From contig JAFUCG010000057.1 in the NCBI GenBank assembly GCA_017459795.1, forward strand, positions 1-32,726: a DNA stretch of 32,726 nucleotides, given 5' to 3'. Of this stretch, positions 3,940 to 32,726 are shown one piece after another. The notes beneath the pieces are model-generated. The model was not told the DNA's origin. It was given only the letters and a program-made list of their open reading frames with translations, and ran no database searches. The translations under genes were made by a program, and so were the position numbers. Position 1 is the first letter of the stretch, and every line of letters begins with the position of its first letter. Origin of the DNA: Erysipelotrichaceae bacterium (GTDB lineage Bacteria; Bacillota_I; Bacilli_A; Erysipelotrichales; Erysipelotrichaceae).

Positions 3940-3960
3940 TGAAGTATTTATGTAGTGGAA

Positions 3961-3992
3961 AGTGAACTTCCGAAATTGGAGGTTCGCTTTTT
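3961..3992 (+). terminator. Rho-independent terminator after nagA
   Basis: An 11-bp stem, AGTGAACTTCC with GGAGGTTCGCT (two G-U pairs), loop GAAATT, then five T. It lies 21 bases after the nagA stop. Confidence 0.8.
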
Positions 3993-4040
3993 ACGTGTTT
4001 TAATGACTTTGTAAATATTCCACTATAAACGGTTTTACTG

Positions 4041-21129: not shown

Positions 21130-22729
21130 GCAGTTAACTGTAATCGCTGTTAAGCAGCTGTTTGGCGGCACAAGAAAAAATGGTAAGAAGAAATTCAAAT
21201 TGCCTCCTTGGGCAACCATTCTGCTCATAGGGGTAGTTCTGTGTGCTTCTTTCTATGTTTTCTTCAGTGAGTTTGCCAATTTCCTATATGGGGCAGGCTT
21301 AGGCTGGGTTTACTTTGCCTTAGTTGGAGCCATGGTATTTACCCTCATTCTATTGACTGACATTGCCATGGTGCAGGGGCAGTTATTTGAATCAACGCAC
21401 AATGACATTCTGTTAGCCATGCCAATCAAGTCAAGTGACATTCTCATAAGCAGATTGATTTCAATGCTGGTATATGACTATGGTTTTGAATTATGTCTTT
21501 TAGGTACAGGCATGGTTGCCTGGATCGTAAGAGCCGGCCGAATTGGAACATTCTTACCGGCAGGGATAGTAGTATTCTTCTTCTGGCCGTTATTGCCACT
21601 GGCCTTAAGCTGTCTGGTTGGCTTCTTATTAACCAGATTTACTTATAAGCTCAAGAATAAGAATCTGGTAAAAACATTATTAGTATTTGGCTTCGTTGCG
21701 TTTTATTATTATATAACCTTTACTCTTGAAGCCAAGATGGCTGATCTTGATAACAACGCCGCTGAAATTGTCCGTACCTTCAGCATGCTTAAAATCACTG
21801 AATGGTTTGGTAAGGGCATAATGCACACTAACATCAAGTACATTCTTTACATCATCATTACCGGCGTAATATCCATGGGCATCATGGTATTCATTCTCAA
21901 TAAGAGTTTCATAAAGATCATTACATCTAACCAGGGTGTAATTTCAACCAAGGAATACAAGGAAAAACCGGTTAAGGAAAGAAGTGTAATTACCGCCTTA
22001 TGGTACAGGGAATTCAAGAGACTTGGGGCATATTTTAACTATCTTATCAATGCCTTAATGCCAATTGTCTTAACTGCTGCCGGCATAATCTTCGTAGTCT
22101 TTAAGGGTGGGGAATTCATTGAATCATTATCAGATGAGGTCACCATGAATTCTGAACTGACAAGAGGTATTGCCGTTACCTTCATCATAGGCATGAGCTG
22201 TGCAATGATGACGACCTACATGCCATCAGCTGCTTCAATATCCCTGGAAGGCGCCAGCATGGAAACATTGAAGTCATTACCAATCGATAATAAGACGATC
22301 ATTCACAGTAAGCTGTTATTCCATTATTCACTAATGGCACCGTTACAGCTGTTCGTTTCAATCGTCTGTGTAGTATTAAGCAAGGCAGACTTCATAAGCT
22401 GTCTGGGCATTCTTTTACTGCCGCAGGCATTCCTTATCCTGACTGATGAGATCGGATTGTGCTATAATCTGTTATATCCGAAGTTAGCCTGGACTAACGA
22501 AGCAGAGGTAGTAAAAAGAGGAGCTTCAATCATCCTCTACATGTTCACAAGCATGATCATTGGCGCAATCATCGTTGCGGTATACTTCTTCGTTCTTGAC
22601 AAGGTCTCTCTCGGATTCTATACTTACATGCTGATAGTAACAGGTGGATTGGGCTTATTAAGCGTAATATTATATCTGGTACTTAGAACAGCAGGAGCAA
22701 GAAGACTTTCTGTCATAGGAGGAGAATAA
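21122..22729 (+). CDS. ABC transporter permease, large polytopic type
   Basis: 535 residues with about ten to twelve hydrophobic segments, including regions near residues 30-50, 62-82, 130-175, 190-210, 245-265, 305-330, 355-375, 400-450 and 475-525. No recognisable substrate-binding domain. The pairing with the ABC-2-type ATPase by an 8-base overlap identifies it as the membrane partner. ATG 21122 has GGAGATGGAGAAAG upstream and is preferred over an in-frame start at 21077 inside the ATPase gene. The permease class resembles putative exporter subunits of Firmicutes, but transport direction and cargo cannot be read from the sequence. Its last base pair overlaps map (TAATG). Confidence 0.82.
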   Translation: MLKQLTVIAVKQLFGGTRKNGKKKFKLPPWATILLIGVVLCASFYVFFSEFANFLYGAGLGWVYFALVGAMVFTLILLTDIAMVQGQLFESTHNDILLAMPIKSSDILISRLISMLVYDYGFELCLLGTGMVAWIVRAGRIGTFLPAGIVVFFFWPLLPLALSCLVGFLLTRFTYKLKNKNLVKTLLVFGFVAFYYYITFTLEAKMADLDNNAAEIVRTFSMLKITEWFGKGIMHTNIKYILYIIITGVISMGIMVFILNKSFIKIITSNQGVISTKEYKEKPVKERSVITALWYREFKRLGAYFNYLINALMPIVLTAAGIIFVVFKGGEFIESLSDEVTMNSELTRGIAVTFIIGMSCAMMTTYMPSAASISLEGASMETLKSLPIDNKTIIHSKLLFHYSLMAPLQLFVSIVCVVLSKADFISCLGILLLPQAFLILTDEIGLCYNLLYPKLAWTNEAEVVKRGASIILYMFTSMIIGAIIVAVYFFVLDKVSLGFYTYMLIVTGGLGLLSVILYLVLRTAGARRLSVIGGE

Positions 22730-23547
22730 TGGAACCATCACAGGAATTAAGAGAAAAAGTAGACGCTTATAGAAGACAAGGATATAAGGTTCCACAGTGG
22801 AAATATGTTAAGACACCTGAACAGATCGAAGGCATCAGAGCTGCAGGTGTAATCAATGCCGGTGTACTTGATCTGGTAGCTGAAAGAATCAGAGCAGGCA
22901 TTACCACTCAGGAAATCGATGACTGGGTAGCTCAGTATACTGAAGAACACAATGCGATCTGTGCACCATATCATTATGAAGGTTTCCCAAAGCATGTCTG
23001 TGTTTCAATAAATGATGTCGTATGTCATGGCATACCTAGCAAGAAGAGAGTGTTGATGGATGGCGACATCGTTAATGTCGACGTAACAACCATTTACAAC
23101 GGTTACTACGCTGATGCTTCAAGAATGTTCATCATTGGTAAGACATCCTCAGAAAACGAAAGAATCGTCAGAGTTGCCAAGCAGTGTCTGGATTTAGGCC
23201 TGGAAGCTGTTAAGCCTTGGGGCTTTCTAGGTGATGTAGGTTACGTAATCGAGCAGCATGCCAGCCGTAATGGCTTCAAGGTTGTCAGAGACTTTGGTGG
23301 CCATGGCGTTGGCCTTGAATTCCATGAAGATCCATTTGTCTATCATTACGGTAAGAAGGGAACAGGTTGTCTGATCGTTCCGGGCATGGTATTCACCATT
23401 GAGCCAATGCTTAACTTCAAGAAGTCAGGTGTCAGGATCAGTAATCTGGATGGCTGGACCGTCTATACAAAAGACGGCTTACCAAGTGCCCAGTGGGAAT
23501 ACACGGTAGCCGTATTTGAAGATCATGTTGAAGTATTAACAAAGTAA
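22729..23547 (+). CDS. map: Methionine aminopeptidase, type I
   Basis: Removes the N-terminal methionine from new proteins; a metalloenzyme. 272 residues, about 20 more than the minimal E. coli form because of an N-terminal extension (1-25) containing a basic YRRQGYKVPQWKY segment. All five metal ligands are visible: Asp118 and Asp129 (NVDVTTIYNGYYADASRMF), His192 (GGHGVGLEFHE), Glu225 (FTIEPM) and Glu257 (QWEYTV). It shares one base with the permease stop and is followed by a terminator. In many Firmicutes map lies in the ribosomal secY-adk operon, so this may be a second copy with a separate role. That is inference, since the rest of the genome is unseen. Confidence 0.95.
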   Translation: MEPSQELREKVDAYRRQGYKVPQWKYVKTPEQIEGIRAAGVINAGVLDLVAERIRAGITTQEIDDWVAQYTEEHNAICAPYHYEGFPKHVCVSINDVVCHGIPSKKRVLMDGDIVNVDVTTIYNGYYADASRMFIIGKTSSENERIVRVAKQCLDLGLEAVKPWGFLGDVGYVIEQHASRNGFKVVRDFGGHGVGLEFHEDPFVYHYGKKGTGCLIVPGMVFTIEPMLNFKKSGVRISNLDGWTVYTKDGLPSAQWEYTVAVFEDHVEVLTK

Positions 23548-23571
23548 AATCTCCTGTAAAGGAGATTTTTT
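23547..23571. terminator. Terminator between map and the DUF3592 gene, possibly bidirectional
   Basis: Perfect 9-bp stem AAATCTCCT/AGGAGATTT, loop GTAA, followed on the plus strand by further T (six in all). The opposite strand has four T after the hairpin, so it may serve both converging genes. Confidence 0.85.
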
Positions 23572-24062
23572 CATAGGAATAAGGTGGCTGCGCCGGCTGC
23601 CAGCAGTATTATACCGATTACCTGAAATACTCTTTGCAACAATTGGATTGTTTTCTGATAATCAGCTATGTAAGAGTCTTCCGGATCATCCGGATTAAGG
23701 AAGATCTCAACTTCATCACCAATTCTTTTCCTTATCGTAGAATCAGTAGTGGAAGAAACGGTAGTGTATTCTTTTCCGGCATAAGTGTAGGTGTATACAG
23801 GATAATATGATGTGGAGCCATTACTGTCAGTCTTAGCTGACTGGCCTGTAATTGTGGCGAATGTTGTATAGCTGCAGCGTTCTTTCTTATCAATGTTAAG
23901 TGTTTCTATGATTCTGGCTACGATCATGAAAATGAGACCTATAGTCATTAGTACGATCTGGGTTATGTGATCTGTGAAGATGAAACTTCCTGCGACTGCC
24001 GCAAAGATAAGGGCCACGCAGATCAGAATGTTTTTCAGTATAAATCCGTTTTCGTTATTCAT
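23571..24062 (-). CDS. DUF3592 domain membrane protein
   Basis: 163 residues, function unknown. Two hydrophobic segments near the start (10-29 and 34-53) and one at the end (141-162). Between them lies a soluble domain with SYYPVYTYTYAGKEYTTVSS and IGDEVEIFLNPDDPEDSYI, the typical DUF3592 pattern. ATG 24062 has GAAAGGAAA just upstream. It lies directly behind the terminator of the Fic-like gene with no clear promoter, so it may depend on read-through. Confidence 0.75.
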   Translation of the reverse strand: MNNENGFILKNILICVALIFAAVAGSFIFTDHITQIVLMTIGLIFMIVARIIETLNIDKKERCSYTTFATITGQSAKTDSNGSTSYYPVYTYTYAGKEYTTVSSTTDSTIRKRIGDEVEIFLNPDDPEDSYIADYQKTIQLLQRVFQVIGIILLAAGAATLFL

Positions 24063-29883: not shown

Positions 29884-31167
29884 ATGATCAGACGTTTGGA
29901 AGAATTAGTCAGACAGTGCAATGTCGATGACTATAGAATCGTTGAATGTACAACAGTATCTCATCAGGCCTTCTTTGTTAAGCAGGACCTTGATCAGCAC
30001 CGTATTTCCGATACAACTCACGTTACTTTATTCTTATATGTTGATAAGGAAGAAGAGGGCAGGAAATTACGTGGTCAGGCTTCAAGAGAATTCTATGAAA
30101 GTCAGAGCGACGAAGAAATTCTGAAGCAGATTGAAGGCATGAAGTTTCAGGCATCCTTAGCCATGAACCCATATTTCGAAATCCCGGCTGATTATAAATA
30201 CGCTGAGGAAAGAAAAGACTATCAGCTGCTTGATGTACTCAAGACACTGGTAAGTGCCATTCAGAATGTTAAGGATACGGAAACAGAAAAGATCAATTCA
30301 TATGAACTGTTCGTTAATGAATACTACTATCAAATCGTAAACTCAAGAGGTGTTGATGTTTCATTCAATACCATGGATGAAGAGGCAGAAGTAATCATTA
30401 ACTCAATTGACGGTGACCATGAAATTGAACTCTATCACAGAGTTAAGTTCGCAAATCAGCCGTTAAATGAAATAACAGATGGCATTCTGGAAGTGTTCAG
30501 ATATGCCAAGGACAGAACCAAGGCAAAGCCAACTAAGAAAATGAATAATGTCACTGTATTAATGACAAGTTTGGATAACGGCGACTTCTTCCGTTATTTC
30601 CTGGCTAAGACAAATGCCGGCATGGTTTATAACAGAAGATCACAGACCAAGGTTGGCGATGACTGTCAGGAAAACTCAAAGGGTGATAAGGTTACTTTGG
30701 AATTAAAGAAGGAATTACCTTATTCAGCCAATAATCTGCCATTTACAACAGAAGGTGTACCGGCTAAGGATATCACCATTGTTAAGGATGGTGTATATCA
30801 AAGCTATTGGGGTGATCAGAAGAACAGTTATTACCTTGGCTTAAAGGAAGCCATCCCGGCTAATAACTACGTCGTATTACCTGGCAGTAAGAGCATTGAA
30901 GAAATGAAGCATGACCCATATCTGGAAATCATTCAGTTCTCAAGCTTCATCATGAATCCGATGACAGGTGACTTCGGCGGTGAAATCAGACTGGCTTACT
31001 ATTTTGACGGTAAGGAAGTAACTCCTGTAACAGGCGGTTCAATTACCTGCAACATGGGTGAGTCATTAAAGCACATCTATCTTTCAAAGGAAACAAGACA
31101 GATCAATAACTGCGTAGTACCAAAGACTGTTCAGATATTTGACGTCGCCGTTGCCGGTGAAGAGTAG
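29884..31167 (+). CDS. tldE: TldE/PmbA, non-catalytic partner of TldD
   Basis: 427 residues, the same fold as TldD but without an HExxxH motif. It shows NNVTVLMTSLDNGDFFRYFL, GVPAKDITIVKDGVYQSYWG and the C-terminal ITCNMGESLKHIYLS. TldE pairs with TldD and closes the proteolytic chamber (established for E. coli). One base separates it from tldD, so they are translated together. The sequence after its stop has no ordinary terminator; a long imperfect hairpin starts 27 bases on. Confidence 0.9.
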   Translation: MIRRLEELVRQCNVDDYRIVECTTVSHQAFFVKQDLDQHRISDTTHVTLFLYVDKEEEGRKLRGQASREFYESQSDEEILKQIEGMKFQASLAMNPYFEIPADYKYAEERKDYQLLDVLKTLVSAIQNVKDTETEKINSYELFVNEYYYQIVNSRGVDVSFNTMDEEAEVIINSIDGDHEIELYHRVKFANQPLNEITDGILEVFRYAKDRTKAKPTKKMNNVTVLMTSLDNGDFFRYFLAKTNAGMVYNRRSQTKVGDDCQENSKGDKVTLELKKELPYSANNLPFTTEGVPAKDITIVKDGVYQSYWGDQKNSYYLGLKEAIPANNYVVLPGSKSIEEMKHDPYLEIIQFSSFIMNPMTGDFGGEIRLAYYFDGKEVTPVTGGSITCNMGESLKHIYLSKETRQINNCVVPKTVQIFDVAVAGEE

Positions 31168-31194
31168 TTTTCTTAAGATAAATTAAGATAACAT

Positions 31195-31271
31195 TAAAGG
31201 ATCCTCTATGTGATCATTAGCCATTATGAATTAACATGATGGTGAGGTGATGACATGAGAAGGATCCTTTA
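31195..31271. repeat. 77-nt long imperfect hairpin/palindrome
   Basis: Outer arms TAAAGGATCCT (31195-31205) and AGGATCCTTTA (31261-31271) pair over 11 perfect bp. Inward, CT/AG, ATGT/ACAT and ATCA/TGAT continue the stem with single-base bulges and one G-G mismatch. After a small internal loop, CCATTATG (31221-31228) pairs with CATGATGG (31235-31242) around AATTAA. Nearly the whole element folds on itself. It covers the ribosome site and start codon of the micro-ORF at 31255. There is no T tract after it, so it is not an ordinary terminator. It could be a regulatory RNA structure or a small mobile palindrome. Confidence 0.75.
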
Positions 31272-31353
31272 CTTGTTTCTGAATATAATAGTTATGATGT
31301 GTTTCTTTCTGTCGGTAATGTGGCGCGTAATGCTTAAGGCCTTTCGATGGTAA
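31255..31353 (+). CDS. Possible 32-residue single-span membrane micropeptide
   Basis: A short frame, ATG to TAA, 33 codons. The peptide begins MRRILYLFLN, has an unbroken hydrophobic stretch (about 4-23) and ends with a basic-aromatic tail (RVMLKAFRW). That is the general shape of type I toxins and other small membrane peptides. GAGGTGA (31244-31250) lies about four bases before the ATG, a good ribosome site, but both are buried in the long hairpin. Its 3' end overlaps the 3' end of the convergent SRAP gene by 20 bases. I recognise no family. Chance remains possible, as any 33-codon frame in such DNA is cheap; the ribosome site and membrane-helix layout are the only support. Confidence 0.35.
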   Translation: MRRILYLFLNIIVMMCFFLSVMWRVMLKAFRW

Positions 31354-31879
31354 ATACCGGTGCAGTACTGAACAAAGAAGCCAGGTCAGCCCTGTTGAGG
31401 TAGTTGGCTGCCTGTTTCCTGTCTAATACAATTGGAATGCGGTCATGGATGTTACTGGTTGAAGTGGCTTCCTTAGTCAGAATTGAACAGTTATTCATTG
31501 TCTCATTATTCTGATATATGCCCGCAAGATAAATGATGTTTTCTTCCGTATGGAAGTAGCACTTGTTTTTCTGGCTGTCCCATTCAAAGAACCCAGAGGC
31601 AGGTATAAGACAGCGGTTATTCTTAAAGTCGGAGGTATAGATTCGCTTGTCTCTGATTGATTCTATTCTGGTATTGATTACCTTGCGGTTAAAGAGTTCG
31701 TAACCCCATTTCATTAAGGTGATTTCATTCTTATTATCAATGGTTAGAATGATGTCTGAAGGGAAGAATTCTCCAGTCCTTTTCCACAGCTTCAAAGTTT
31801 CCTGATTGAACTTATCAGCCAGGATTTTTTCATAGATGGAAAGATCCAATTCTTCACTTAATACGTATCTGCCGCACAT
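31334..31879 (-). CDS. SRAP-domain protein (SOS response-associated peptidase, YedK/HMCES family)
   Basis: 181-residue protein that, in this family, forms a thiazolidine crosslink with abasic sites in single-stranded DNA through Cys2, shielding them. Seen: MCGRY at the N-terminus with Cys2 exposed after Met removal, VINTRIES (67-74), RCLIPASGFFEW with Glu99, and the active-site His145 in HDRIPIVL. It is a little shorter than the roughly 220-residue E. coli YedK. GAGGTA sits eight bases before the start, and a TGTTATAAT extended -10 lies upstream. Its end overlaps the convergent micro-ORF. Confidence 0.9.
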   Translation of the reverse strand: MCGRYVLSEELDLSIYEKILADKFNQETLKLWKRTGEFFPSDIILTIDNKNEITLMKWGYELFNRKVINTRIESIRDKRIYTSDFKNNRCLIPASGFFEWDSQKNKCYFHTEENIIYLAGIYQNNETMNNCSILTKEATSTSNIHDRIPIVLDRKQAANYLNRADLASLFSTAPVFTIERP

Positions 31880-31940: not shown

Positions 31941-31965
31941 AAAAAAATCATGCAATTTGCATGAT
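31941..31965 (-). terminator. Terminator of the Rpn-like gene
   Basis: On the minus strand ATCATGCA/TGCATGAT (8 bp) with a three-base loop, followed by a run of T. The stop codon of the gene lies inside the 3' arm. Confidence 0.8.
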
Positions 31966-32583
31966 GTTGTAAGATTGTTTATCGTTAATGATTTGGTTGA
32001 TGCTTTCAATAGTGAGTCCGGTAGCCAGGCTAATCTGTTCAATGGAGAAGCTGGCTTTACGCATGCGTAAGACGGTTTGCCTTAAGGCGTCATTCATGCC
32101 GTCCTTAAGACCTTGTATTCTACCTTCTTTTAAACCTTCAGTTTTTCCTTCTTGAAGTCCCTGTAATTTGCCTTCTTCCAGACCCTGTAATTTACCTTCT
32201 TGAAGACCTTGCAGTTTACCTTCTTCTAGTCCTTGAAGTTTCCCTTCTTTGAATCCCTCTGATCTTCCTTCCTCCAAGCCAATTTTTCTGCCTTCTATTT
32301 TGGCCTTTTCAAGATTATATTCATGGATTCTCTGCCTTTCTTCTTCGCTCCATTCTGTAAGAATCATATTGATCACCTCAGCTTTGTGAGCAATCAGTAA
32401 TGGTTTAATTTCGAATGTATCCGGCATTTCCTTTAAAACATTATTGACGATTTCTTCATCAACTGCACCAGCCAGATGATATTCATTGCACATATCAACG
32501 AACCAGCTGTATTCATAGAGCGGGCCGCATTTTTCCATTAACTGTTTGTTCTTTCCCTTACTGATATTAAACATCGTTACCAT
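31948..32583 (-). pseudogene. Rpn-family (PD-(D/E)XK transposase-like) nuclease gene, 5' half lost at an IS insertion
   Basis: The readable 211 residues match only the C-terminal half of Rpn/PDDEXK_2 proteins, which are usually about 280-350 residues. LMEKCGPLYEYSWFVD (15-30) and PDTFEIKPLLIAHKAEVINMILTEW (54-78) are what normally follows the nuclease core. A run of eight EGK/EGR octads (97-160) and a helix-turn-helix-like end (about 175-205, SIEQISLATGLTIESINQII) complete it. The N-terminal PD-(D/E)XK catalytic domain is absent. The frame begins exactly where an IS3-type end starts (32584), so the present ATG is probably an internal codon. The rest of the gene would lie beyond the IS, outside the window. 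No ribosome site is visible. Confidence 0.7.
32104..32295 (-). repeat. 24-bp coding tandem repeat (8 octads, EGKLQGLx)
   Basis: Eight in-frame copies of an 8-residue unit; the four central ones are EGKLQGLE or EGKLQGLQ in alternation, and the outer ones are degenerate (EGRKIGLE, EGRSEGFK, EGKTEGLK, EGRIQGLK). Such C-terminal EGxxxG repeats are common in Rpn proteins and can change copy number by slippage. Confidence 0.85.
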
Positions 32584-32726
32584 TGTGAAGTGAACCCCTA
32601 AAGTTGGACCAACTTAAAGGAGGTTCACTTTTATTATGAAGTATTCAAAGGAATTCAAACTGGAGTGCGTTAGAAAGCGAAAAGAAGGAATATATATCGA
32701 GACGCCACCGGGATTTAAAAGCAGAG
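32584..32726 (+). mobile_element. Left end of an IS3-family (IS150-like) insertion sequence, cut by the window edge
   Basis: The end begins 5'-TG and contains CCCCTAAAGTTGGACC, the type of terminal repeat found on IS3-family elements, then an AGGAGG ribosome site and the start of an orfA-type transposase gene. The exact tip (32584, or a few bases on at 32591) is uncertain because the other end and target duplication are outside the window. The tip forms a hairpin: AAGTGAACC...GGTTCACTT outside and AAGTT...AACTT inside. Confidence 0.7.
32636..32726 (+). CDS. IS3-family transposase OrfA-type protein, N-terminus only (partial)
   Basis: Thirty codons from ATG 32636 to the right edge, starting MKYSKEFKLECVRKRKEG, the usual first helix of the helix-turn-helix protein of IS3/IS150 elements; TPPG a few residues later fits the same group. 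AGGAGG lies 12 bases upstream, inside the 3' arm of the terminal hairpin. The remainder, and the orfB integrase, would lie outside the window. Confidence 0.75.
   Translation, partial: MKYSKEFKLECVRKRKEGIYIETPPGFKSR

What the first reader, a model, noticed from the sequence alone, without database searches (positions are those of the whole stretch)
31195..31353. A 77-nt hairpin buries the ribosome site and start of a 32-residue membrane micropeptide
Seen: 11-bp perfect outer arms (TAAAGGATCCT/AGGATCCTTTA), further paired blocks inward and an 8-bp inner stem, together folding almost all of 31195-31271. GAGGTGA and the ATG at 31255 are both in the 3' side. The ORF encodes a short basic start, one hydrophobic helix and a basic-aromatic end. 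Known: type I toxins are small membrane peptides whose mRNAs hide the ribosome site. Inference: this could be a structure-controlled membrane peptide or toxin whose 3' end is antisense to the SRAP transcript, or else a small mobile palindrome with a chance ORF.
Basis: partly seen in the sequence, partly recalled or inferred. Interest (0 to 1): 0.6.

Follow-up and report, generated by a model that had tools for sequence, protein, structure and literature searches.

The report
Hairpin-locked membrane micropeptide gene candidate
A gut bacterium carries, between two converging genes, an unusually strong RNA hairpin that hides a textbook ribosome site and start codon of a 32-residue membrane peptide; it may be a small locked (possibly toxin-like) gene found in only two genomes, or a transcription stop signal with a lucky reading frame.

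Summary
31195-31271 folds at -38.7 kcal/mol (z -7.8). The Shine-Dalgarno GAGGTGAT (31244-31251) and the ATG (31255) of a 32-codon ORF lie in its 3' side. It is the strongest 80-nt fold in about 397 kb of this genome and its nearest relative. The ORF is one of four small noncoding-region ORFs there with an 8-nt Shine-Dalgarno match, and the most hydrophobic together with its ortholog. Two independent extremes coincide, which argues against pure accident.

It is single-copy and found only in this MAG and one sister genome (goat jejunum RGIG2567): hairpin 0/77 changes, ORF 1/96 (M14I). It is absent from the other 313 genomes of the order searched. So it is not a mobile palindrome family in what was searched, but there is no covariation and no codon-level selection signal. 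Codon usage looks non-coding, and no own promoter or antisense RNA is evident.

It sits between convergent tldE and SRAP, where relatives carry plain terminators, so a bidirectional terminator is a serious rival. Best reading: a lineage-specific, hairpin-locked membrane micropeptide that works like a type I toxin mRNA. Membership in any type I toxin-antitoxin family is not shown.

The parts
31195..31271 (+). 77-nt hairpin, 32 pairs, four of them G-U on the + strand
   Evidence: -38.7 kcal/mol, z -7.8; minus strand only -26.9; rank 1 of 98,492 windows
31213..31218 (+). anti-Shine-Dalgarno strand of the hairpin (ATCATT), pairs with 31246-31251
   Evidence: pairing
31244..31251 (+). Shine-Dalgarno GAGGTGAT, 8-nt match to the assumed 16S tail, good spacing to the ATG, buried in the 3' arm
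31255..31353 (+). 32-codon ORF MRRILYLFLNIIVMMCFFLSVMWRVMLKAFRW*: basic start, one hydrophobic helix, basic-aromatic end, net charge +5
   Evidence: 1 nonsynonymous change (M14I) in the sister genome
31179..31364 (.). block with 1 change in 186 nt against the sister genome
   Evidence: third codon positions 14.4%, other intergenic 5.8%; four other clusters of equally unchanged 186-nt windows exist in the contig
29884..31167 (+). tldE/pmbA-like metalloprotease subunit, ends 27 nt before the hairpin
   Evidence: Pfam PmbA_TldD_3rd 9.5e-22
31334..31879 (-). SRAP gene, convergent; its stop lies about 63 nt from the hairpin and its 3' end overlaps the ORF by 20 nt
   Evidence: Pfam SRAP 1.8e-30

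Best explanation
A lineage-specific small gene. RNA that crosses 31195-31271 (read-through from tldE or an unrecognised local promoter) folds into a long hairpin that pairs the Shine-Dalgarno sequence and most of the start codon, so the 32-residue single-helix cationic membrane peptide is normally not made. Opening or cutting the hairpin (RNase III, another RNA, or a transcript starting inside the 5' arm) would release the peptide, which would insert in the cell membrane. Shown: the sequence, the predicted fold, the strong ribosome site, single-copy status and presence in two genomes. Inferred: transcription, translation, the locking, the release step and any toxicity. It works like a type I toxin mRNA; that it is part of a toxin-antitoxin pair is not shown. 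The hairpin may also stop transcription of the two converging genes.
For: The hairpin is the strongest 80-nt fold in 397 kb of the two genomes. The small ORF is one of four with an 8-nt Shine-Dalgarno match in about 47 kb not covered by long ORFs, and with its ortholog the most hydrophobic. The two features sit on the same 160 nt, which would be a rare coincidence if unrelated. In the contig, 8-nt or longer Shine-Dalgarno matches ahead of a start otherwise mark a gene, an IS transposase-like start and one in-frame site inside a gene. The site has the lowest folding energy around a start (-45.4 against -33.9 or weaker for 31 genes) and the second-lowest accessibility. Two of the four G-U pairs are at the GG of the Shine-Dalgarno, and the plus strand folds 12 kcal/mol better than the minus, as expected if the plus-strand RNA is what is selected. 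Hairpin 0/77 and ORF 1/96 changes in the sister genome while third codon positions differ by 14.4%. Peptide size, hydrophobic helix and cationic C-terminus match the general description of membrane type I toxins (PMC8309996), and a non-translatable primary transcript with a hidden Shine-Dalgarno is called a hallmark of type I loci (PMC6733600).
Against: Codon choice is like wrong-frame sequence: only 0.3% of real 32-codon stretches, and 2 of 31 membrane-like ones, score lower. No synonymous change is seen, so conservation is at nucleotide, not codon, level. Only two genomes have it and their hairpins are identical, so there is no covariation test. No promoter reaches the consensus threshold near it. 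No family match beyond noise. The position between convergent genes suits a terminator. Other stretches of the contig are equally unchanged between the two genomes.
Confidence: 0.45

Rival explanations
1. A bidirectional intrinsic terminator shared by the convergent genes tldE and SRAP; the ORF and its Shine-Dalgarno are accidental.
For: It lies in the 166-nt gap 27 nt after the tldE stop and about 63 nt after the SRAP stop, with no other terminator called in the gap. Relatives carry plain terminator hairpins after tldE and/or SRAP. Both strands fold (z -7.8 and -6.8). The tail after the last G-C pair is moderately U-rich (TTTACTTGTT on +, TTTAATGTTA on -; read). ORF codon usage is non-coding-like.
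Against: At 77 nt it is far larger than the 24-nt terminator-like hairpin at another convergent junction of the contig (23546-23569). The tail is interrupted and the scan does not call it. The outstanding Shine-Dalgarno plus membrane ORF would be coincidence. Four G-U pairs on one strand only are not expected of a two-way terminator.
Confidence: 0.32
2. A conserved noncoding or antisense RNA element: the constraint is on the RNA, for instance the 3' UTR of SRAP or tldE mRNA protecting or pairing with a target, and no peptide is made.
For: 1 change in 186 nt extends across hairpin, ORF and the SRAP 3' end with no synonymous change.
Against: No Rfam match. The Shine-Dalgarno and membrane ORF would be coincidence. 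The unchanged block may be recent recombination, since similar blocks occur elsewhere.
Confidence: 0.13
3. A small mobile or decayed palindrome (MITE-like) with a chance ORF.
For: Near-palindromic 77 bp with outer arms ending in TA.
Against: One copy in the genome; none in other species of genus, family or order; none in viral contigs, plasmids or phages.
Confidence: 0.05

Closest known systems
bsrG/SR4 type I toxin-antitoxin of Bacillus subtilis (PMC8309996)
   Same: Small hydrophobic peptide (38 residues) with cationic C-terminal part; Shine-Dalgarno made inaccessible; a neighbouring transcript overlaps the 3' end on the opposite strand.
   Different: Here the hidden Shine-Dalgarno is in a closed 5' hairpin; no antitoxin RNA or toxicity is known; no sequence relation was found in the family libraries.
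aapA/IsoA type I toxin-antitoxin of Helicobacter pylori (PMC6733600)
   Same: Toxin of about 30 residues (AapA1: 30) with one helix; Shine-Dalgarno-sequestering hairpins and a non-translatable transcript.
   Different: There the lock is a 5'-3' long-distance pairing plus transient short hairpins, released by 3' trimming; here one long 5' hairpin includes the start codon.
ISPpu9 transposase mRNA 5'-UTR of Pseudomonas putida (PMC8450116)
   Same: Stable 5' structure that buries the ribosome site, proposed to be opened by an antisense RNA.
   Different: Transposase gene in a multicopy IS; here a single-copy micropeptide without transposase.
Bidirectional intrinsic terminators between convergent bacterial genes
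   Same: Position and two-strand folding.
   Different: Much longer hairpin, interrupted U-tract, strong Shine-Dalgarno and start codon in the stem.

Membership tests
Type I toxin-antitoxin (membrane toxin class) | Peptide under 60 residues, hydrophobic, one putative membrane helix, cationic residues | tested here: met
   32 residues, 19-residue Kyte-Doolittle maximum 2.53, net +5
Type I toxin-antitoxin (membrane toxin class) | Shine-Dalgarno sequestered in the toxin mRNA | tested here: met
   Predicted fold only
Type I toxin-antitoxin (membrane toxin class) | Antisense RNA antitoxin with its own transcript | tested here: inconclusive
   No consensus promoter on the minus strand near the ORF; SRAP read-through could be antisense but needs RNA data
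Type I toxin-antitoxin (membrane toxin class) | Toxicity on overexpression, relieved by the RNA | not testable with these tools
   Needs an experiment
Known toxin families in Pfam, NCBIfam, PHROGs, PADLOC | Sequence match | tested here: not met
   No significant match
Intrinsic terminator | G+C-rich stem directly followed by a U-tract | tested here: inconclusive
   Stem present; 7 of 10 U on + and 6 of 10 on - after the last G-C pair by eye; not called by the scan
MITE / mobile palindrome | Several copies at unrelated sites | tested here: not met
   One copy, same site in two genomes

The most novel reading that the evidence does not exclude
A new type of locked micropeptide gene: the peptide mRNA is sealed by a single long 5' hairpin that contains the start codon. 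The convergent SRAP transcript (a DNA-damage-associated protein) supplies the antisense strand, so that peptide release is tied to the balance between tldE read-through and SRAP transcription.
Probability: 0.08. Interest if true: 0.6.

Novelty: new member of a known kind. Interest (0 to 1): 0.38.

Why it matters
Species-restricted micropeptides with sealed mRNAs are missed by annotation: size cut-offs drop them and homology searches find nothing. If real, this is a compact example in uncultured ruminant-gut Erysipelotrichaceae, with a simple recipe for finding others: coincidence of an extreme hairpin and an extreme ribosome site. If it is only a terminator, it is ordinary.

Tried and rejected
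Mobile palindrome family: rejected, single copy. Rfam element: no hit. Weak peptide and hairpin hits elsewhere in the genome (G000:C45, C178, C90): all inside ordinary coding sequence, a signal peptide among them. Covariation: impossible, the two known hairpins are identical. Synteny in relatives: after tldE or SRAP they have plain terminators or other genes and no peptide; minus-strand loci were first read unoriented and redone. Conservation of the block as proof of function: weakened, because four other clusters of 186-nt windows in the contig are as unchanged.

Full report
Setting. The window is the whole contig C95 of a fragmented genome (2.0 Mb, 212 contigs). The closest relative found, G001, appears to be the Erysipelotrichaceae MAG RGIG2567 from goat jejunum (contigs of the same length, 57,716 bases). 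The finding lies in the 166-nt gap between tldE/pmbA (29884-31167, +) and SRAP (31334-31879, -), which converge.

Observation. The hairpin is real as sequence and prediction: 77 nt, 32 pairs, -38.7 kcal/mol, z -7.8. It persists in a longer transcript. The minus strand folds less well (-26.9, z -6.8) because four pairs are G-U on the plus strand, two of them at the GG of the Shine-Dalgarno. The Shine-Dalgarno GAGGTGAT and the ATG are in the 3' side as stated.

How unusual. Two independent backgrounds were made. Folding every 80-nt window (step 8, both strands) of 396,598 bases from the two genomes put this hairpin and its ortholog at ranks 1 and 2; rank 3 was -36.0. Among ATG ORFs of 18-70 codons lying mostly outside long ORFs (about 47 kb), four had an 8-nt Shine-Dalgarno match: this ORF, its ortholog, a 56-residue peptide that looks bacteriocin-like, and a 24-residue one. 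In shuffles of the region, an ORF of at least 30 codons with an 8-nt match occurs at 0.015%, and with a 7-nt match and a membrane helix also at 0.015%. Among 31 genes of the contig the folding energy around this start is the lowest by 11 kcal/mol and accessibility the second lowest. The 16S tail was assumed to be of the usual Bacilli type, not read from this genome.

Distribution. DNA, peptide and covariance-model searches found the element only in the window genome and G001, at the same place. It was not found in the rest of the genus (7 genomes), the family (272 searched), the order (315) or a draw of 392 genomes of the phylum. Phages and plasmids gave no convincing match, viral contigs none. 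Rfam, Pfam, NCBIfam, PHROGs and PADLOC gave nothing significant for the peptide.

Conservation. Against G001 the hairpin has no change and the ORF one (ATG to ATA at codon 14, M to I). 31179-31364 has one change in 186, while third codon positions of three neighbouring genes differ by 14.4% and other intergenic sequence by 5.8%. This is suggestive only: four other clusters of 186-nt windows in the contig are as unchanged, and absence of synonymous change means that the constraint, if any, is on nucleotides. Codon choice resembles wrong-frame sequence, with rare TCG, CGA and CGC; membrane peptides and young genes often look so (own knowledge), but it counts against.

Neighbourhood. G004 has after tldE a perfect stem followed by T's; G006 and G007 have a short G+C-rich hairpin with TTTT after tldE; G005-G008 have short hairpins with T-runs after SRAP. 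Terminators are therefore expected here, and the 77-nt hairpin is the only structure in the gap that could serve. Its tails are moderately U-rich. Another convergent junction of this contig (23546-23569) uses a 24-nt terminator-like palindrome. The terminator reading is the main rival and could be true together with the gene reading.

Mechanism. The best single account is that RNA crossing the gap is translationally sealed: the hairpin hides the Shine-Dalgarno and start codon, and opening or cutting it would allow a cationic one-helix peptide to be made. RNA beginning at 31220 or later would leave the site about half open, against about a quarter in the full hairpin. No consensus promoter was found for such an RNA or for an antisense RNA. 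By eye there is a weak TTGCCG-17-TAAGAT at 31151-31179, damaged in G001 (A31178C). Membrane type I toxins share size, hydrophobicity, cationic C-terminus and sequestered Shine-Dalgarno (PMC8309996; PMC6733600). A 5' structure that buries a ribosome site and is proposed to be opened by an antisense RNA is known for the ISPpu9 transposase (PMC8450116). Antitoxin and toxicity are untested, so this locus is described as working like a type I toxin mRNA, not as a member of the family.

Verdict. Observation confirmed; interpretation partly supported; candidate locked micropeptide gene (0.45), terminator with chance ORF (0.32), noncoding RNA element (0.13), mobile palindrome (0.05).

Noticed in passing
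L075:6581-6751 (-), G000:C45: 56-residue ORF with an 8-nt Shine-Dalgarno match, MLLDERQCAELSGGSFTAGKLFLYMAITAMGAAIFKILFSSRGKVSFAGLNLTWGN, with a GG motif before a hydrophobic part: looks like a bacteriocin-type peptide.
   Followed up: no
window 32097-32288: 24-bp repeat array inside the gene at 31948-32583 (-), encoding GLQEGKLQ-like repeats; weak C-terminal match to Rpn family nuclease (TIGR01784). The alignment with the sister contig stops at 31908, just before this gene.
   Followed up: partly
window 32590-32726: Probable start of an IS transposase gene with an IS-end-like repeat; the terminator-like hairpin at 3955-3994 carries a similar GTGAAC...GGAGGTTC motif.
   Followed up: no
L053:19657-19736 (G001:C55): Another strong near-palindrome (CTCTAAAATAATTGGTGGG...CCAACTATTTTAGAG) in the sister contig, -34.7 kcal/mol.
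   Followed up: no
window 23546-23569: 24-nt palindromic terminator-like hairpin between convergent genes 22729-23547 (+) and 23571-24062 (-).
   Followed up: partly
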